Source: Leptolyngbya ohadii IS1 (GTDB lineage: Bacteria > Cyanobacteriota > Cyanobacteriia > Elainellales > Elainellaceae). From it: a stretch of DNA of 64,000 nucleotides. The stretch is taken from NCBI RefSeq assembly GCF_002215035.1, contig NZ_NKFP01000007.1, positions 124,001 to 188,000 of the forward strand, in the 5' to 3' direction. Under the pieces are notes generated by a model that was given only the letters and a program-made list of their open reading frames with translations, searched no databases and was not told where the DNA came from. The position numbers and the translations under genes are program-made. The number at the start of each line of letters is the position of its first letter. Within the stretch, counting starts at the first letter, position 1. Of this stretch, positions 8,142 to 32,615 are shown piece after piece.

Positions 8142-8846
8142 CTACAAATTAAAAGACAGGGGATACAAACAAAAGCCTGCCCCAACAAAAATTAACAAAC
8201 TTCCCACTACCAGTGAGAAAAGCTTGCCATGTTCCCACTGCCGTTCAACCACCATTACAACAGTTAAGACTGCCATTAGAGTAGCGTTGCTCATGCCTGC
8301 CACCAGCATGAGCAACATTAAAGCCCAGCAGCAACCCAGACAGTTTAGAGAGTATCGTGTTCCCATTCGCAGCATTGAAGATGCACCTGAACTATAATAA
8401 GTCAGCAACATTGCGACTGCGGAGCGACAACCCTCCAAGCAAGCTTGCTTGAGCGGCGTAAATTGAAAAATTCCTGCTCCAATTAATACAATTTCCTGCC
8501 AAAAAGAAAAGGGAATAGCCTGAATTCCACTCATACTTTGAGAATGATGAGCAAACGGCTTCAATAAGAGAAAAACCGCAAAGCTTGACCAGATTAACCA
8601 GTAAGGAAAAACAAAAGCAATCCGATCGATCAATCGTGGCGTTAACTGCATTAGCGATCGAAAAACAGGCAATACAGATGGCAACATCATCACTATCAGC
8701 ATAAGCTGCCATTCTAAAAATAGCAGCAGCCCGTTTGGATGATGGGCGATCGAGTGAAGGGTTAGCAGCCCTATCCAGGCAACGCCGATTCCAGTCCAGG
8801 CAAGAAGATTCCAGACAGAAGGGAGTGGGACTAGAGCTTGAGTCAT
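8142..8846 (-). CDS. DUF2182 family integral membrane protein
   Basis: A 234-aa protein with about six hydrophobic segments. It shows the family's marks: WQLMLIVMMLPSVLPVFRSL early, PLKQACLEGCRS in the middle, and CLGCCWALMLLMLVAGMSN with two adjacent cysteines near the C-terminus. DUF2182 proteins are described as predicted metal-binding membrane proteins of unknown activity and are commonly encoded next to DUF1326 proteins, as here. ATG 8846 overlaps the stop of the DUF1326 gene as ATGA, which argues for translational coupling; a GTG at 8855 in the same frame is less likely. A role in metal handling is only an inference from cysteine content and neighbours. Confidence 0.8.
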   Translation of the reverse strand: MTQALVPLPSVWNLLAWTGIGVAWIGLLTLHSIAHHPNGLLLFLEWQLMLIVMMLPSVLPVFRSLMQLTPRLIDRIAFVFPYWLIWSSFAVFLLLKPFAHHSQSMSGIQAIPFSFWQEIVLIGAGIFQFTPLKQACLEGCRSAVAMLLTYYSSGASSMLRMGTRYSLNCLGCCWALMLLMLVAGMSNATLMAVLTVVMVVERQWEHGKLFSLVVGSLLIFVGAGFCLYPLSFNL

Positions 8847-9280
8847 ACCTGGCACTCAAAATTAACTGCTTTCAAGTCACTTTTCTGAAATAAGCTACCG
8901 ACAGATACCGAGACTTGCTGCTGCTGTCGAAAAGCTTGAATTGGAGCCAGTTTGGGAGGAAGCTGAATCGGAGCCAACCGCGATAGATCGGCAAGCTTTC
9001 CTCCCATCCGTCCTGTGAAGGCACTCACCAAAGCCTGCTGCTGTGAAAATGACAGACTGGAATCCAGGTAGAGAATTGACTGTCCTCCATCGCCAGCAAT
9101 TAATCGAATGAGAACTGCCCCAGCAACATCGACTTGATTAATAGTTCCTGCCTCAATTTGATATGCCACAAACTGAGAGCAGGGAGAGGACGATCGCCAG
9201 CAGGAACACCCCAATGATCCTTCACAGCCGCAGGTTCCCGTTGTCCATCCTTTGAGCGAGTAGTGCTGCATGGCGTTCAT
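8843..9280 (-). CDS. DUF1326 domain-containing protein
   Basis: The 145-aa protein begins with YSLKGWTTGTCGCEGSLGCSCW, followed by a conserved YQIEAGTINQVDVAGAVLIRL core, matching the DUF1326 pattern (Cys-rich start, then Y-x-I-E-x-G...D-V-x-G). Seven cysteines fall in the first 40 residues, which suggests metal or Fe-S binding, though no function is established. Its ATG at 9280 overlaps the stop codon of the ancestral Cys-rich gene (stop 9277-9279) as ATGA. The DUF2182 gene overlaps its own stop in the same way. The three genes were therefore one coupled unit before an IS entered the first of them; the coupling upstream is now lost. Confidence 0.75.
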   Translation of the reverse strand: MNAMQHYSLKGWTTGTCGCEGSLGCSCWRSSSPCSQFVAYQIEAGTINQVDVAGAVLIRLIAGDGGQSILYLDSSLSFSQQQALVSAFTGRMGGKLADLSRLAPIQLPPKLAPIQAFRQQQQVSVSVGSLFQKSDLKAVNFECQV

Positions 9281-23866: not shown

Positions 23867-26800
23867 CTACCCAGCGATCAGTGCCTCAAATACTGCTCGA
23901 ACTGCCTCTCGTTCCTCGTCAGTCGTGGCATCAGCCCACATTGCTTGCAGATCTTCGATCGAATCTTGAGGGATTGATCCGGCTGTTGGGGACTGTAGCT
24001 CGGTTTCAGTCACTTCTACTTTTGGATCTCCCGTCTGTTTTTGAGAATCTATAGTGGGGGGTGATCCGTTCGATTGAGCCGCTTTTCGGCGTTGTTCGCG
24101 GCGGTCTAAAATGCCCTTGAGTAGATGCCAGTGAGAACTCTCTACTCGATAAACGCGCAGCTTTTCGCCTTCATAGCCCTCGACGGATCGGGACCAGCAA
24201 AAATCAACCTTGATTCCCAGTTGGGAGAGAAGCTGATGGACAATTTGTACCTCGCTCATCTTCTCCGACACAGTGAAATGGAGGTGTGCTTTAACAGCCG
24301 GAGCAAACTGCAAAGCTTTTTCTGCATAGGTCTGAAGGTCGTACTTTGTCCATTCCTTGTCTGGGTTCAGAAAATCATCTAGCCCTAGTTCTTTGCGAAT
24401 CGCTTGCCGCACTGCGCTATTGGCAATGTCCCACGGGCAAAGCCCCTGGTTCCAGCTTGCCTGTTTTTCCAGTGCCTTCACCGTGCGATCCGTCGATGCC
24501 TCCGGTGAGAACTGTGCTTCCAGGTTGGCAATCTCCCCGCGCAATCGACCCTGTTTGTCCAGCAGTACAAAATCGACGGTCAGAGTGTGGGGATCAATCA
24601 CGTAGAAATCACAGAGATTAAACCGCTCGATTGCTAACTTATCTTCTGGACTCACGCTATCCTTGCTCTCCAGTTCTAGCTTCTCTGCTAGGGTCAGGAT
24701 ACGCGCAGCGACGATCGCCTCAGCATCCATCTCCTTCAGTTCTGACCGGGTTTCTGCCAGCATGGAGCGTACAGATTCGTCACGTTCCCACCGGGCAACG
24801 GTCAGACGATTCCCCTCATATCGGAGCCGAACCTGAAGGGCATCTGCAAGTTGCAGCATTGACCAGTTTTGCTCGGCAGCAATTTTGCTGTAGAGATCTA
24901 CATGAGGGTCGGATTGCCAGTCGTAGTTGTCCAGTTCCCCGGCGATGTCTTCACGCAGGCTGGAACGAATCAGCGAAACGGTTACAGCAGTTCGCTCTTG
25001 CAGATGTCGCTTTAGTTCCATTGCGTTGGTTGAGCGACTGACTTTGTTAAAGCTGCTTCCGGTCTGGGCACACCAGACGATGCGCTCGACACGTTCTCTC
25101 ACTCGCGAAAGTGCCTGAGACATATCGGCATCATTGATGCTGACTCCGGTAAAGATGCCGTAGACCCGTTGGACGATGCCCTGACATTCGATTGAAACAC
25201 CAGTGCCCATACTAGGAGTCGCGAGAATCACCAGCCGATTCTTTGCTTGGGCAGCTTCGAGCAGATGGGGGTCAGGGCTACTGATGACGGATCGCTCAAA
25301 CTCACCGCCCGACGATTCGCTGTTGATATTCCAGACCGTGATGCCATTGTTGCTTTGTTCGATCAGTCGCTCGATCGTTCGGGCAAGTGCTTTAGAATCC
25401 AGGCACACAAACAGGGCATGACCGGGAGGAAGACTGCCAATCTCATCCAGCAGTTGTCCAACCACTGCACTACGATCTGAAGATTCAATAAACGTGCAGG
25501 GATAGCCGTTACTCTGATAGTCGTTGCGGATGAGAAAGACCTGAGCATCTTCACCCCGCAGTTCTCGAATGTAGTGCAGCGTGGCATTGTCCAGGTCTGC
25601 GTCTGCCACAATGACCCGTCGCGCCATTTGAATTAAGGATCGAAACCGCGCCAGCAGCGCCGGACGCTTCCCATCTTTAGCACAGGTGGAGCTGGTCAAT
25701 AAGTGACGCACGACCTGGACGACTTCATCCAGCACCAGATCGCAGCCCCGAAACTGCTCTGGATCGATCGCCAACAGCGAATCTACACAGAAGCCAATGC
25801 GAAGGGTATAGGCAGAGCCGTTGATGAACTGACCCTTTGCTTTATCGCAGTCGCCAATGTAATCCAGTCCCAGCCGTTTAGAGAGGTTGCGCTGGAGGGC
25901 AATCCGGTGTCCGGCAGAGAGAACCGCAGGCAAGTCTAAGACCTGTTGTGCCGTCCACTTGGTCTTGCCCGTTCCCTTACCGCTAGAGACACCGATGATG
26001 CCTTCCTGGGGAATTTGGTCGAGTTCCAGGGTAGAGAGGTCGGCAGTGTTGATTCTGAGATTGGCTTTCCAGGTGAGCCGAGACTCTAGTTTTTGCCAGA
26101 TGCGCCAATGTGCAAGAGGCATTGCCTGATCTAGAGCCGTTCCCCACGCGCCAGCTCCGGAGGCGACAATCAAATCGTCTACCCCCTTGCCCAATCGTCC
26201 GTCCCAGGTGGCGATCGTCACGGCACATCCTGCTTGCTGCAACAGTCCGCCGAAGCGTGAGAGGGCAACGTTTACCCGCAGTCGGGTTTTGACTTCTGCA
26301 TCCTGGTCAAATGCCAGGACGATTGATCTCCCAGGCACGGTGAATCGTCCAACATCCTCAATCAGCAATCGTTCGCCGATCGAGTTTTTGCAATATCCAC
26401 CATTTACCCCGTACAGTGCGATCGCCACGTAGCCCAAGCTGAGTAAAGACAAAGCTTTCTTGCCGCCCTCGGTGAAGAGGATTTCGATTTCAGGGTGCTG
26501 TTCGAGCCACTGCCAGAAAGAGCCGGTGGTCGGAACATCGATGCCATAGCGGTCAGCGATCCTGCGGCGGATTGAAGTTGGAATGTGAGGTAAAAATGCT
26601 CTAGAGCCATTGCCCTTGCGGGTTTCGTACTTGATAGTCTTGCCGCGATCATCTTTGCGGGGCTGGCTCAGCTTGGCTTGCCAAAGTGAGCCGTCTTCAT
26701 TGAGGAGCAGCGCACCATAGAGAGTCTGCTTCACTTGGAAGCCAAAGCGCGTGTACCGCCAGTCGAGGGCATCATGAATGGGAGTGATTGGTTCGCCTAC

Positions 26801-26953
26801 GGCATCAAATTCTAAATCCGATCGAATCTGAACCGTGGCGGCGAACAGTTCGGTATCGATGCCGCTGCCCTGGCAAAACTCCCGCTCAATCTGCTGCTGA
26901 AATTGCTCACAGGAAAGGACGGTTCTAGCCGTAGAGGAAGGGGATAGCATCAT
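23867..26953 (-). CDS. CyRepA1-type plasmid replication protein (DUF3854/toprim-like plus helicase)
   Basis: The 1028-aa protein has an N-terminal toprim-like DUF3854 region (ILFTEGGKKALSLLSLGY, then IVLAFDQDAE and GKGVDDLIVASG). A P-loop ATPase/helicase region follows with Walker A SSGKGTGKTKW (about residue 340), a DEVV box in CDLVLDEVVQVV, and ADADLDNATLHYIREL. This matches the cyanobacterial large-plasmid initiators called CyRepA1, the type that includes Slr7037 of the Synechocystis plasmid pSYSA. It should start plasmid replication and may open DNA. ATG 26953 has a GGAGGG ribosome binding site. The stop of the upstream 191-aa gene is 2 bases before it, indicating coupling. The nearby iteron/Rep module makes this the second initiator candidate in the window. 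Confidence 0.85.
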   Translation of the reverse strand: MMLSPSSTARTVLSCEQFQQQIEREFCQGSGIDTELFAATVQIRSDLEFDAVGEPITPIHDALDWRYTRFGFQVKQTLYGALLLNEDGSLWQAKLSQPRKDDRGKTIKYETRKGNGSRAFLPHIPTSIRRRIADRYGIDVPTTGSFWQWLEQHPEIEILFTEGGKKALSLLSLGYVAIALYGVNGGYCKNSIGERLLIEDVGRFTVPGRSIVLAFDQDAEVKTRLRVNVALSRFGGLLQQAGCAVTIATWDGRLGKGVDDLIVASGAGAWGTALDQAMPLAHWRIWQKLESRLTWKANLRINTADLSTLELDQIPQEGIIGVSSGKGTGKTKWTAQQVLDLPAVLSAGHRIALQRNLSKRLGLDYIGDCDKAKGQFINGSAYTLRIGFCVDSLLAIDPEQFRGCDLVLDEVVQVVRHLLTSSTCAKDGKRPALLARFRSLIQMARRVIVADADLDNATLHYIRELRGEDAQVFLIRNDYQSNGYPCTFIESSDRSAVVGQLLDEIGSLPPGHALFVCLDSKALARTIERLIEQSNNGITVWNINSESSGGEFERSVISSPDPHLLEAAQAKNRLVILATPSMGTGVSIECQGIVQRVYGIFTGVSINDADMSQALSRVRERVERIVWCAQTGSSFNKVSRSTNAMELKRHLQERTAVTVSLIRSSLREDIAGELDNYDWQSDPHVDLYSKIAAEQNWSMLQLADALQVRLRYEGNRLTVARWERDESVRSMLAETRSELKEMDAEAIVAARILTLAEKLELESKDSVSPEDKLAIERFNLCDFYVIDPHTLTVDFVLLDKQGRLRGEIANLEAQFSPEASTDRTVKALEKQASWNQGLCPWDIANSAVRQAIRKELGLDDFLNPDKEWTKYDLQTYAEKALQFAPAVKAHLHFTVSEKMSEVQIVHQLLSQLGIKVDFCWSRSVEGYEGEKLRVYRVESSHWHLLKGILDRREQRRKAAQSNGSPPTIDSQKQTGDPKVEVTETELQSPTAGSIPQDSIEDLQAMWADATTDEEREAVRAVFEALIAG

Positions 26954-26955
26954 TG

Positions 26956-27531
26956 TTACCCTCCCTGCATCCGCCGACTTACCTGCGCGAATTGCTGCTG
27001 CTCCTGGGGCGTGAACTGTGCCCAAACCTTCTCCTGGAAGAATGGGGGAAGTTGAACAAACTGGTATAGAGCAGTAGTAGGGTCAAGCGATCGAAGATTT
27101 GCCGTGACCTTCTTGAGCAAATTTGCTTCCCCAATCACGCAAACTGCATTGCCATAGCAAGCATGAGGTTCTGCGGCAAAAGCACAGGCAACATCGGTAG
27201 CTGTAGTGCTTCTTTCCAGTAGCATTGCTAGCCGCCGATCAACCGTTTGGTAAACTGCGAAGAGTTCAGATAGGGGAACTACTGAATCGGGAGCAAACCG
27301 ATCAAGTATTGGGGTTTGAGTATCGGCAATAATTTGAGAGCGATTAATGCCATTCGTCTGAGCAGAGATTGTTCCTGCCCGACAGGATGGTTTTCCTGGA
27401 GCACTAAGCGAGTGCTGTGGTGAAGGTTGAGATATCAGTTCATAAAGTGCTTCGCTGTCTTTTCGCGAAGGAGGGACTGAGCGATCTGGGTTAGAAGAAC
27501 TCGCGGAAGAAAATAAGAATTGTTGAAACAC
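26956..27531 (-). CDS. Hypothetical protein upstream of and coupled to CyRepA1
   Basis: The 191-aa protein starts at GTG 27531. The first 65 residues are Ser/Pro-rich and probably disordered. The rest is helical, with SELFAVYQTVDRRLAMLLERS and a C-terminal LPPFFQEKVWAQFTPQEQQQF. No known domain was recognised. It ends 2 bases before the CyRepA1 start, so both are read from one transcript and it may be a replication accessory or copy-number protein. A later start is possible, as no strong ribosome binding site precedes the GTG. Confidence 0.6.
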   Translation of the reverse strand: MFQQFLFSSASSSNPDRSVPPSRKDSEALYELISQPSPQHSLSAPGKPSCRAGTISAQTNGINRSQIIADTQTPILDRFAPDSVVPLSELFAVYQTVDRRLAMLLERSTTATDVACAFAAEPHACYGNAVCVIGEANLLKKVTANLRSLDPTTALYQFVQLPPFFQEKVWAQFTPQEQQQFAQVSRRMQGG

Positions 27532-27958
27532 AAAATATCAAGACTCCAAAAAGCAGTACATGGAGCCGGATACATTGGTTAGAAACTCAAAAGCAAAGCA
27601 GAATTCAATGAAGCGATTCACAAGTTATCGATCGCCCATTACTGCTACAAATATTAGATTGCATCAAATCTAAGCCTTGCCAAAGTTCTAACACCCTCCG
27701 GCAAGGCTCAGAGTAATGAAAAAAGTGAAAAATCTTTCATACTCTGATCCCAAAAACTTTGCATGAAAAATTGGGATCTGATATGATGCGAAGTAGAAGG
27801 ACGCACTATATCAGTCCTCTTCCACAACCTGTGTCCCCGCCAAGGTAAGAGGTTGTGATCTAGGTGAATCTCCGGGTCGAAGCTTCTAACTGTGTCCTAT
27901 CACCTTTAGCAAGCTCTCCCGGTGTCTTATCAAAAGTAATCGTGATATGGGAACGCTC
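27532..27958. other. Leader/intergenic region of the CyRepA1 operon with inverted repeats
   Basis: This 427-bp gap holds no gene but several signals. There is an inverted repeat AGCCTTGCC/GGCAAGGCT (27673-27681 and 27700-27708) and another, GATCCCAA/TTGGGATC (27746-27753 and 27771-27778), that overlaps the plus-strand promoter. Two mutually exclusive stems are possible: CCTCTT 27816-27821 with AAGAGG 27847-27852, or CACAACCT 27823-27830 with AGGTTGTG 27850-27857. A minus-strand extended -10 (TGATATAGT, TATAGT at 27805-27810) could start the operon transcript leftward. Confidence 0.6.
27759..27787 (+). promoter_or_regulatory. Near-consensus sigma-70 promoter, plus strand
   Basis: TTGCAT (27759-27764) and TATGAT (27782-27787) are exactly 17 bases apart. 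They point rightward, away from the CyRepA1 operon and toward the 3' end of the HTH gene. No plus-strand protein gene follows, so the product would be an RNA. Expected start near 27793-27795. Confidence 0.7.
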
Positions 27959-27990
27959 CTAGACGGTCTGTGTAGAGAGCGTCGGTTTTT
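27793..27990 (+). ncRNA. Candidate structured ncRNA/antisense RNA (about 195 nt)
   Basis: The span starts at a near-consensus promoter and ends at a hairpin ACGCTC/GAGCGT (27953-27958 and 27977-27982) followed by GGTTTTT. No open frame with a ribosome binding site lies between, and two alternative stems can form near the 5' end. The RNA is complementary to any minus-strand transcript reading from the HTH gene into the CyRepA1 operon, and overlaps the last 32 bases of the HTH gene. Antisense RNA near the Rep gene is known to set pSYSA copy number in Synechocystis; the same role here is inference. Confidence 0.45.
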
Positions 27991-28546
27991 CATAGGCTTC
28001 TCCTGTTGATTTGCAGATAGGAGCTTTTCGAGGTTGCTTTTTTAGCACTGGTTCGGCAACGACTTCAACTTGAAACAATTGGTCGATTGTTTTCAATTGA
28101 AGAGCTTGAGCGATTTTATCAAGCGAACTTAGGAAAAAAGGCTGCTCTGATATAATCGCTTCTTGCTGCAACGACTTTAATAGTCGGCGGCTCACTATTT
28201 GCTGCCTTTGTAGTGCTGTTTTAGTTGTGCCCGCGCGTTTAACGCATTCATCAAGCCGACTGACTACGGTCAAGTGTGGCTGGTCTTCCAGGATGTCTGG
28301 AAGTGACCACTGTGCTTGCTCGAAATCAATAATATCGCTGAGGCGTTTCAGGTGAAACGCCCTGCACATATCAAGCATGAAGAATGCAGTAACCTCTATA
28401 CTGCCTTTGCATTCCCAAAAGTTTCGGGAATACCAGGCTGTGTCTCCAGAACAGTGATAGTTAAGCGAAACATCAAGATGTTGAAGGAATTCCCTCAACG
28501 TCCTAATTTCCCAGATCTCAGCTACTTCCCTAACCTTAATTCGCAT
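27959..28546 (-). CDS. Helix-turn-helix-like regulatory protein
   Basis: The 195-aa protein has a C-terminal region (about residues 97-160) that reads like a Cro/CI-type HTH: VKRAGTTKTALQRQQIVSRRLLKSL, then LDKIAQALQLKTIDQLFQVE. The ending KIAxAL...xxxLF is the usual last helix of that fold. The N-terminal part (VREVAEIWEIRTLREFLQHL) may be a second, degenerate HTH. A basic tail (KKQPRKAPICK) follows. Lying between the iteron-Rep gene and the CyRepA1 operon, it may control replication genes. The match is by pattern only, with no exact family. Confidence 0.5.
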   Translation of the reverse strand: MRIKVREVAEIWEIRTLREFLQHLDVSLNYHCSGDTAWYSRNFWECKGSIEVTAFFMLDMCRAFHLKRLSDIIDFEQAQWSLPDILEDQPHLTVVSRLDECVKRAGTTKTALQRQQIVSRRLLKSLQQEAIISEQPFFLSSLDKIAQALQLKTIDQLFQVEVVAEPVLKKQPRKAPICKSTGEAYEKPTLSTQTV

Positions 28547-28625: not shown

Positions 28626-28660
28626 TTAATTTGACCAGAATTAACCTCTAGTCAAATTAA
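28626..28660 (-). terminator. Inverted repeat after the Rep-like gene, probable terminator
   Basis: Perfect 10-bp arms TTAATTTGAC/GTCAAATTAA enclose a 15-base loop, 34 bases after the stop of the minus-strand Rep-like gene. On that strand it is followed by TTTTG. A TTGACA (complement of 28618-28623) lies just beyond and could be the -35 box of the HTH gene. Confidence 0.45.
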
Positions 28661-28693
28661 GAGTTTCTTCAGTGTGTCAATCGGGTGCTGTCC

Positions 28694-29785
28694 TCAGGTT
28701 CCGCTTGCTTTTAGCTTCTCAGGATTAATCTGAAACTGAATCGTTGCAGCCTTCCTTTTGCCAGGAAGCTCTTGTGCCCCTGAGATGTAGCCATCCTGCT
28801 GTAACTCCTCTACTGTACGCCAGAAGATTTGGTTATTGCGGGCTGTGTTGCTTCCGAATAAGTCAAGGTTCTTGAATAAATATTGCTTAGATATTGTGAG
28901 GTACTGCCCGTCCTGTGGAGAATCCCACTTCAATCGGCTGGCTAGGTAAATTAGCAACTTTGTTTTGTAGTCGTTTTTGGCGTTGTTTCCTAGCTTCTGC
29001 TTTAGATCAATGTCGCTAGCAAAGAGTACATAGTCTCCGGTACGTCCCGGACCCTCAAAAAATTCCAGGGCAACTGTGTAAGCATCTGCTAACTCATAGG
29101 TGTAGTCAGCAGCCTTCGACAAGTCAAAATCGCGTGGAACGTTATCAATCTCGTAATCCTTAATTCGCAGGACACTCTTGATCATGACTTTTGCCCCCAC
29201 TTGATTACCCTTGCGAAGGGATTGGGCAAGGACAAGTTCTGTGCGGTGTAGAGCGACCAAATCGCGGTTAAGCTGTGAGCGCACCTTTGAAGCAAATCCG
29301 CCGTCTTTAGTACGTTTGTATCCAAGACAATCAAGCAAGTCATTTGATCTGAACGTAACAAGTCGCCCGTTACCCTGGTGGGCTGCCAGACGATATAGAT
29401 AAAGAACAATTGCAACCTGTCTGGGGTTGAGGAATGTCAGCAGCGCCATGAACAGTCGTTGGATTCTACGATCCTGAATTTTTTCTAGTCCATTACTAAT
29501 CCCCTCATCGGTGCAGGACTGTAGATCGAGATTGGCATACTGCTGCTTTAGTTCTTCCCATTCTTCTACCGATAGGTTTTCTAGTTGTACCCTTCGGGTC
29601 AGGGTCACTTCACTAGGATCATTAGAATCTGACTCAACCCGCATCTCCAGGTAGTAGCCATCCTCATCGGCTCGCAGGATTGGTAGCTTAACATCGGGGT
29701 TCCTAAGAGACGCTCCTGCGCGAGGCAACACCATTAGGAGTTGTCCATCGACGGCGAAAGCTCCATTCTCTTGCTTGTCTAGCAT
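28694..29785 (-). CDS. Putative iteron-binding plasmid replication initiator
   Basis: The 363-aa protein seems to contain two winged-helix-like regions. One is near residues 140-190 (TFRSNDLLDCLGYKRTKDGG, then VRSQLNRDLVALHRTELVLA) and one near 300-350 (LTISKQYLFKNLDLFG, then FWRTVEELQQDGYISG). Two winged helices are the plan of iteron-binding Rep proteins such as RepA and RepE. An array of twelve 18-bp iterons begins 145 bases upstream of its start, with a TTGACA...TAATAT promoter between. Together these support an initiator that binds the iterons and may repress its own promoter. ATG 29785 has an AGGA ribosome binding site. No named family was recognised, so the call rests on context and fold pattern. 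Confidence 0.6.
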   Translation of the reverse strand: MLDKQENGAFAVDGQLLMVLPRAGASLRNPDVKLPILRADEDGYYLEMRVESDSNDPSEVTLTRRVQLENLSVEEWEELKQQYANLDLQSCTDEGISNGLEKIQDRRIQRLFMALLTFLNPRQVAIVLYLYRLAAHQGNGRLVTFRSNDLLDCLGYKRTKDGGFASKVRSQLNRDLVALHRTELVLAQSLRKGNQVGAKVMIKSVLRIKDYEIDNVPRDFDLSKAADYTYELADAYTVALEFFEGPGRTGDYVLFASDIDLKQKLGNNAKNDYKTKLLIYLASRLKWDSPQDGQYLTISKQYLFKNLDLFGSNTARNNQIFWRTVEELQQDGYISGAQELPGKRKAATIQFQINPEKLKASGT

Positions 29786-29870: not shown

Positions 29871-29930
29871 TATCCTAGAACTAGCGTTTTCTGCCCAAAG
29901 AAAAAATAAGTCCACTAAATCTAGAAGTAG

Positions 29931-30316
29931 CCTGTAACTCCGGCGTATGATTTTTGGGAAGTAGCCTGTAACTCCGGCGTATAGTTTTCGGAGAAGTAGC
30001 CTGTAACTCCGGCGTATAGTTTTACCTGTAGATCCGGCGTACTGCAATTAAATGAGCCTGTAACTCCGGCGTATGGTTTCACCCTGTAACTCCGGCGTAT
30101 GAATTGCAAAAAGTAGCTTGTGGAAGTATGAAGCCTGTTAGATCTTCCTTTGATAGCCTGTAACTCCGGCGTATGGTTTCATCCTGTAACTCCGGCGTAT
30201 GGTTTTAGGAATAGCCTGTAACTCCGGCGTATGGTTTTACCCTGTAACTCCGGCGTATAATTTTGGGAAAAAGACCTGTAACTCCGGCGTATAGTTAGCT
30301 TGTAACTCCCGCGTAT
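29931..30316. repeat. Iteron array, probable plasmid origin (12 copies)
   Basis: The 18-mer CCTGTAACTCCGGCGTAT is repeated in the same orientation at 29931, 29965, 30000, 30025, 30057, 30083, 30157, 30183, 30215, 30241, 30275 and 30299. Ten copies are exact; 30025 (GA for AC in the centre, final C) and 30299 (two changes) are variants. Most start-to-start distances are 24-35 bases, with one of 74 around a degenerate piece near 30134. The gaps have varied sequence, often AT-rich. The array lies between the divergent Rep-like and primase genes, the expected place of an iteron-controlled origin. The rest of the 29786-30513 gap holds a promoter on the Rep side and a terminator on the primase side. 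Confidence 0.9.
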
Positions 30317-30364
30317 ATTAGGATTGAGCCGCTTGAGATTCTTATAGTGCAGTGATACCCTTCA

Positions 30365-32474: not shown

Positions 32475-32615
32475 TCAGTCTTTAGGCTTAGGCAATCGCT
32501 TAATGTAGTCAGTCAACATCTCAGAAACCGTTGTATTGCGCTCTTTTGCAATTTTCTCAACTTTTTCTTTTAGCTCAGGAGCGATCCTGAATTCAATCCT
32601 TTCAGATCGTACCAT
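32475..32615 (-). CDS. Small ribbon-helix-helix protein
   Basis: The 46-aa protein reads like a CopG/Arc-type ribbon-helix-helix: a beta strand ERIEFRIAPELKEKVEKIA, then a turn RNTTVSEMLTDYIKRL. It is divergent from tnpB with 28 bases between the starts. Two direct copies of TGTC(C)GTACA (32615-32624 and 32627-32635) lie in that gap and could be its operator, giving self-repression and control of tnpB. A longer start at 32660 would overlap tnpB and is less likely. Confidence 0.65.
   Translation of the reverse strand: MVRSERIEFRIAPELKEKVEKIAKERNTTVSEMLTDYIKRLPKPKD

What the first reader, a model, noticed from the sequence alone, without database searches (positions are those of the whole stretch)
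27759..27990. Promoter-hairpin-terminator unit in the CyRepA1 leader region: candidate ncRNA
TTGCAT-N17-TATGAT is followed by about 195 nt with alternative stems, then a hairpin with GGTTTTT. No protein gene is on that strand. In the related pSYSA plasmid an antisense RNA near the Rep gene is known to control copy number, so a similar controller is plausible.
Basis: partly seen in the sequence, partly recalled or inferred. Interest (0 to 1): 0.6.

Follow-up and report, generated by a model that had tools for sequence, protein, structure and literature searches.

The report
Antisense RNA beside plasmid replication gene
A cyanobacterial plasmid seems to carry a small RNA made from the strand opposite the start of its replication gene; such RNAs usually act as brakes on plasmid copy number, and the same layout recurs in many related plasmids although only one case has been tested.

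Summary
TTGCAT (27759-27764), 17 nt, an extended TATGAT (27782-27787), about 198 nt and a hairpin with five Ts (27953-27990) lie on the + strand, opposite the leader of a CyRepA1-family replication gene. By a sigma-70 matrix the promoter ranks 3rd of 127,928 positions in the window. It is unchanged in the only relative found with this leader, and the block 27700-27900 is at least as conserved as the coding DNA beside it. The first ~150 nt fold into three stem-loops, on the + strand more strongly than on the opposite one.

The same scan of 32 CyRepA1 leaders finds an antisense promoter-terminator unit in 19, against 2 on the sense strand and 1-2 in shuffles. On pSYSA, where such an RNA is published at 153 nt, it predicts the right start and ~151 nt.

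Best reading: a cis-encoded antisense RNA of the pSYSA asRNA1 kind that limits replication by pairing with the rep leader. Transcription, the sense transcript and the copy-number effect are inferred. Weak points: the terminator is not conserved, and no clear sense promoter is visible. New member of a known kind; the family-wide recurrence is the new part.

The parts
27759..27787 (+). promoter of the antisense RNA: TTGCAT-N17-TATGAT, extended -10 (TG)
   Evidence: 3rd of 127,928 positions; identical in G001
27793..27990 (+). candidate antisense RNA, about 198 nt; start 27793-27795 inferred from the -10 box
   Evidence: + strand z -3.2 over 200 nt
27796..27820 (+). stem-loop 1
   Evidence: MFE fold of window and G001
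27823..27857 (+). stem-loop 2: 8-bp stem, interior loop, 2-bp cap stem, loop CCGCCAA; the opposite strand reads TTGGCG (YUNR U-turn candidate)
27863..27931 (+). stem-loop 3, long, interrupted stem
   Evidence: outer and inner stems unchanged in G001
27953..27990 (+). intrinsic terminator-like hairpin with T5; not conserved in G001
   Evidence: alignment
27672..27818 (-). four back-to-back hairpins in the rep-strand leader; one covers the antisense -10 box and start, one holds the antisense -35 box in its loop
   Evidence: - strand z -7.3 (window) and -5.9 (G001), + strand -5.7 and -2.7
26956..27531 (-). 191-aa ORF between leader and rep; its TAA stop is two bases before the rep ATG, so translational coupling is possible
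   Evidence: 69% identical over residues 65-191 in G001
23867..26953 (-). CyRepA1-family plasmid replication protein (ATG at 26953; the open frame reaches 27025)
   Evidence: NF042913 347 bits, cut-off 200; start codon; 28% identical to pSYSA Slr7037
27959..28546 (-). 195-aa ORF upstream of the leader, no family hit; end overlaps the terminator
   Evidence: codon-position bias

Best explanation
A cis-encoded antisense RNA for replication control. RNA polymerase starts at about 27794, copies the + strand away from rep and stops at about 27990 (or near the end of stem-loop 3). The three-stem-loop RNA is complementary to the 5' part of a transcript that runs the other way through the leader, the 191-aa ORF and CyRepA1. 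Loop-loop pairing (stem-loop 2, UUGG U-turn in the target loop) followed by duplex formation would keep the leader from taking up the hairpin structure needed for priming or Rep synthesis, so that copy number is limited and plasmids with the same loops are incompatible. Shown: promoter, conservation, fold, orientation, family-wide recurrence. Inferred: that the RNA is made, that the sense transcript crosses it, the pairing step and the copy-number effect.
For: Promoter 3rd of 127,928 positions and letter-identical in G001, including its -35 box in a hairpin loop whose other bases change. The block 27701-27900 is 84-94% identical per 50 nt, against 72-88% for the 195-aa frame and 44-64% for the first half of the 191-aa frame. 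Core fold z -4.0 and -4.4 on the + strand, -1.6 and -2.4 on the other. Antisense units in 19 of 32 CyRepA1 leaders (14 of 23 clusters), sense 2 of 32 (2 of 23), shuffles 1-2 of 32, control strands 3 of 172. Positive control: on pSYSA the best antisense hit gives -10 TAAGAT at 32494 for the published start 32481, ~151 nt for the published 153, z -3.9 antisense and +0.6 sense. Two CyRepA1 contigs of genome G001 (L034, L035) have predicted antisense RNAs that differ at 18 of 103 unpaired and 2 of 70 paired positions, as expected if loops diverge between coresident plasmids.
Against: No transcript data. The terminator is not conserved, and the unit scan finds none in G001 (L033). Only one relative carries this leader, so covariation cannot be tested; in the core, pair conservation does not favour either strand. 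The 1-of-74 versus 20-of-75 contrast rests on a consensus fold and shrinks to 7 of 84 versus 14 of 65 with the window fold alone. No strong sense promoter lies right of 27990. 13 of 32 leaders gave no antisense unit. A promoter of this score occurs in 7% of shuffled leaders. The target lies 263 nt from the 191-aa ORF and about 840 nt from rep.
Confidence: 0.72

Rival explanations
1. The conserved block is a DNA element: origin, Rep-binding site or single-strand initiation site made of four inverted repeats. The + strand promoter is incidental or only sets transcription through the origin.
For: Four adjacent hairpins with very low shuffle z on both strands; a 13-bp imperfect palindrome over the promoter; no known RNA family.
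Against: Conservation and a + strand-biased fold continue for ~120 nt beyond the repeats; the promoter is among the best in 64 kb; equivalent antisense units recur in other leaders.
Confidence: 0.13
2. The + strand RNA is real but is not a loop-pairing inhibitor: it could be a replication primer, act in trans, or work by transcriptional interference with a converging rep promoter.
For: No sense promoter is identified; the RNA starts next to the hairpin array.
Against: It runs away from rep and the array; pSYSA asRNA1 has the same geometry, and there extra sense RNA in trans raises copy number.
Confidence: 0.1
3. Chance promoter and hairpin in a structured leader; no RNA is made.
For: The consensus scan is not above shuffles; the terminator is not conserved.
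Against: Promoter rank and identity in G001; 19 of 32 antisense against 2 of 32 sense.
Confidence: 0.05

Closest known systems
asRNA1 of Synechocystis plasmid pSYSA (PMC9978351; abstract, section 13, part 1 of section 23 and found passages read)
   Same: Antisense, upstream of a CyRepA1 gene, read away from it; sigma-70-like promoter; three stem-loops; antisense-biased fold.
   Different: asRNA1 is 153 nt, complementary to coding gene ssr7036, starting 166 nt from the rep CDS. Here ~198 nt, facing mostly untranslated leader, ~840 nt from rep with a 191-aa ORF between; no Ssr7036 relative in the two neighbouring ORFs. Reps 28% identical.
I-complex plasmid RNAI / Inc RNA (ColIb-P9, IncB, IncK; passages and reference list of PMC10724649)
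   Same: A stem with interior loop and top loop facing a target loop that reads UUGGCG, the motif named in a ColIb-P9 paper title in that list.
   Different: No CGCCAA partner for a RepZ-type pseudoknot on the rep strand of 26850-27960; three stem-loops, not one ~60-nt hairpin.
ColE1 RNAI (RF00106)
   Same: Three-stem-loop antisense RNA over a putative pre-primer (as compared in PMC9978351).
   Different: No Rfam match; ColE1 has no Rep protein (recalled).
pT181 / pIP501 attenuation (recalled; pIP501 passages in PMC4485353)
   Same: Antisense RNA opposite a rep leader.
   Different: No canonical sense terminator right after the target; the one sense candidate is not found in G001.

Membership tests
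pSYSA asRNA1-type antisense RNA | antisense strand, upstream of a CyRepA1 gene, read away from it | tested here: met
pSYSA asRNA1-type antisense RNA | promoter-terminator unit of 80-230 nt by the scan that recovers asRNA1 | tested here: met
   window ~198 nt, pSYSA ~151 nt; not met in G001 for lack of a terminator
pSYSA asRNA1-type antisense RNA | three stem-loops, stronger fold on the antisense strand | tested here: met
pSYSA asRNA1-type antisense RNA | complementary over its length to a small coding gene like ssr7036 | tested here: not met
   faces untranslated leader; overlaps only the end of an unrelated 195-aa ORF
pSYSA asRNA1-type antisense RNA | hairpin with loop motif GCCGTCCAAAGC (seen here in pSYSA, L037, L061) | tested here: inconclusive
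   a model built without window and G001 puts stem-loop 2 second in 4 kb, 9.4 bits, E 0.55
pSYSA asRNA1-type antisense RNA | expressed, cleaved by RNase E, affects copy number | not testable with these tools
   needs dRNA-seq, Northern blot, minireplicons
ColE1 RNAI (RF00106) | match to the covariance model | tested here: not met
   no hit at gathering score nor at E up to 5
I-complex RNAI | target loop UUGGCG and interior loop | tested here: met
   likely convergence
I-complex RNAI | CGCCAA pseudoknot partner downstream in the leader | tested here: not met
   none on the rep strand of 26850-27960 or in G001
pT181/pIP501 attenuation | conserved sense intrinsic terminator after the antisense target | tested here: not met

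The most novel reading that the evidence does not exclude
Antisense control of the rep leader is ancestral or repeatedly selected across the CyRepA1 plasmid family of cyanobacteria, not a pSYSA peculiarity. The RNAs are 100-210 nt, often end in a hairpin followed by TTTTTGGCTTT, and several share a recognition hairpin around CGYCCAA; their loops would define incompatibility groups and explain how one cell keeps several CyRepA1 plasmids.
Probability: 0.45. Interest if true: 0.68.

Novelty: new member of a known kind. Interest (0 to 1): 0.55.

Why it matters
CyRepA1 is a widespread Rep of cyanobacterial plasmids (48 of 98 relatives and 222 PLSDB records have a match), yet antisense copy control has been reported, in the papers I could search, for pSYSA only. 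If most CyRepA1 leaders carry an antisense RNA, copy number and compatibility become predictable from sequence and tunable in cyanobacterial vectors, and the coexistence of several CyRepA1 plasmids in one cell becomes directly testable.

Tried and rejected
Rfam at gathering score and at E up to 5: nothing credible for the window or for pSYSA. Leader DNA in PLSDB: no match; in 98 relatives and 388 genomes of the class only G001, plus one 22-nt chance hit. IncI-type pseudoknot partner: none. k-mer search for a leader-wide motif: TCCCCGCC occurs on the antisense strand in 5 of 31 leaders and on the sense strand in none, but it is not general. Loop-motif descriptor: 16 of 32 antisense, but 13 of 32 sense too (shuffle mean 5.8), so not strand-specific. 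Covariance model R1 of the CGYCCAA hairpin: stem-loop 2 not significant (E 0.55); of the 7 seeds, 6 scored E 4e-4 or better and L053 0.12; the best non-seed hit was L021, E 0.03, antisense upstream of rep. My early note that pair changes in the hairpin array fit only the rep strand was too strong: with single-sequence folds 11 of 19 changed pairs are kept on the rep strand and 7 of 20 on the other. My note that the repeats always lie beside the 363-aa gene was also too strong: 7 of 12 loci. Single-sequence structure prediction of the 363-aa neighbour: pLDDT 41, not searched further. Of the fetched CyRepA1 loci, L021-L032 (mostly below 43% identity), the fragments L018 and L020, and L063 (same plasmid as L064) were not put into the 32-leader counts; the other low-numbered loci are duplicates of places already counted.

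Full report
Setting. The window is 64 kb of a 292-kb contig (G000:C7) of a genome of 8 contigs. The finding lies upstream of a minus-strand gene whose product matches NCBIfam CyRepA1 (NF042913, 347 bits, cut-off 200) and Pfam DUF3854. Reading with rep (right to left): a 195-aa ORF (28546-27959), a 427-nt non-coding leader (27958-27532), a 191-aa ORF (27531-26956), and rep from ATG 26953, two bases after the TAA of the 191-aa ORF.

Observation. On the + strand TTGCAT (27759-27764), 17 nt and TATGAT (27782-27787, extended by TG) are followed by about 198 nt and a bulged hairpin with T5 (27953-27990). The provided consensus scan is no better than shuffles here. A weighted sigma-70 matrix with approximate values from general knowledge ranks the site 3rd of 127,928 positions on both strands of the window. 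As the best antisense site in a 900-nt leader it has a shuffle frequency of 7% (2% for G001).

Conservation. Of 98 relatives only G001, a same-genus genome that matches Cyanobacteria bacterium FACHB-502 contig 87, has the leader, 87% identical over 27700-27940; of 388 class genomes only G000 and G001, apart from one 22-nt chance match. Promoter and start region are identical. Per 50 nt, identity is 84-94% over 27701-27900, 72-88% in the 195-aa frame and 44-64% in the first half of the 191-aa frame. The terminator region 27942-27975 is not conserved, and no unit with terminator is found in G001.

Structure. The first ~150 nt fold into three stem-loops in both genomes. Shuffle z of the core is -4.0 (window) and -4.4 (G001) on the + strand, -1.6 and -2.4 on the minus strand; the 1% quantile of 84 background strands is -2.49. 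Left of the start (27672-27818) the bias turns: four hairpins in a row fold better on the rep strand (z -7.3 and -5.9) than on the + strand (-5.7 and -2.7). This suggests a structured rep-strand leader RNA that also covers the antisense start, but changed pairs support it only weakly (11 of 19 kept on the rep strand, 7 of 20 on the other). Within the core, pair conservation does not separate the strands.

Family comparison. I took 32 leaders: the window, 23 CyRepA1 loci from relatives, 7 from named plasmids, and pSYSA. Leaders group into clusters of similar DNA. A scan for a promoter (score at least 8.5) followed after 80-230 nt by a terminator (at most -12 kcal/mol) finds a unit on the antisense strand in 19 of 32 and on the sense strand in 2 of 32; six rounds of shuffles gave 1-2 of 32. 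By cluster it is 14 of 23 against 2 of 23; 86 control pieces of 1 kb gave 3 of 172 strands; the excess holds for all 15 threshold pairs tried (one-sided Fisher for clusters 2e-4, 1e-3 without the window cluster and pSYSA). The thresholds were set after I had seen the pSYSA score. pSYSA is a positive control: asRNA1 starts at 32,481 and is 153 nt long (PMC9978351 section 13); the scan puts its best antisense -10 box at 32,494 and gives ~151 nt. Predicted lengths run from ~100 to ~211 nt; the window's is the second longest.

Loops. pSYSA asRNA1, L037 and L061 share GCCGTCCAAAGC in a hairpin (shuffle mean 0.02 leaders); L043, L038 and L052 carry variants. The window's stem-loop 2 has the same build (long stem, interior loop, 2-bp cap, loop CCGCCAA), but a model made without it does not find it significantly (E 0.55). 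The opposite strand reads UUGGCG, a motif named in a reference title on ColIb-P9 Inc RNA (PMC10724649, reference list), and contains a YUNR U-turn as found in recognition loops (PMC4485353, passages). The IncI pseudoknot partner is absent.

Mechanism. By analogy with pSYSA (PMC9978351, part 1 of section 23) the RNA would pair with the leader of a transcript that runs into the 191-aa ORF and rep. Conservation with G001 falls away right of about 28640, so the sense promoter should lie between there and 27818; no strong candidate is seen. The published sense start of pSYSA also has a weak score (6.4). Whether the brake acts on priming or on Rep synthesis cannot be decided from sequence; conserved attenuation by an intrinsic terminator is unlikely.

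Novelty. Searches for CyRepA1 with antisense RNA found only PMC9978351; DUF3854 with plasmid and antisense found nothing; a broader search found no other cyanobacterial rep case in its listing. Most subscription journals are not held. The window RNA is a new member of a known kind; its recurrence across the family is the part I have not seen in print.

Noticed in passing
window 28694-29785 (-) and 29923-30321: A 363-aa protein without Pfam, NCBIfam or PHROG match, 'hypothetical' on six PLSDB plasmids, lies next to ten exact copies of CTGTAACTCC(C/G)GCGTA. Relatives, most of them 73-97% identical, occur in 29 of 60 genomes; the exact repeat lies by the gene in 7 of 12 loci checked and a variant array in L081. 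Candidate unrecognised iteron-type replication initiator.
   Followed up: partly
window about 28640-28694: In G001 the 363-aa gene is on another contig (C51) than the CyRepA1 locus (C87), and similarity to the window stops here: the 292-kb plasmid may be a fusion of two replicons.
   Followed up: partly
window 27959-28546; L033 about 8709-9280: The 195-aa ORF has a one-base shorter T run in G001 that shifts the frame after about residue 157, while the shifted frame stays conserved: recent decay, slippage or an assembly error.
   Followed up: partly
L034 and L035 (two contigs of G001): Two CyRepA1 contigs of one genome have 88% identical leaders whose predicted antisense RNAs differ mostly in unpaired positions (18 of 103 against 2 of 70), as expected for coresident plasmids made compatible by loop changes.
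   Followed up: partly
L050 and L062 leaders: Exact TTGACA-16-TAGAAT units on the sense strand upstream of CyRepA1 in two unrelated leaders, repeated in L050; they may be iteron-like or tandem promoters.
   Followed up: no
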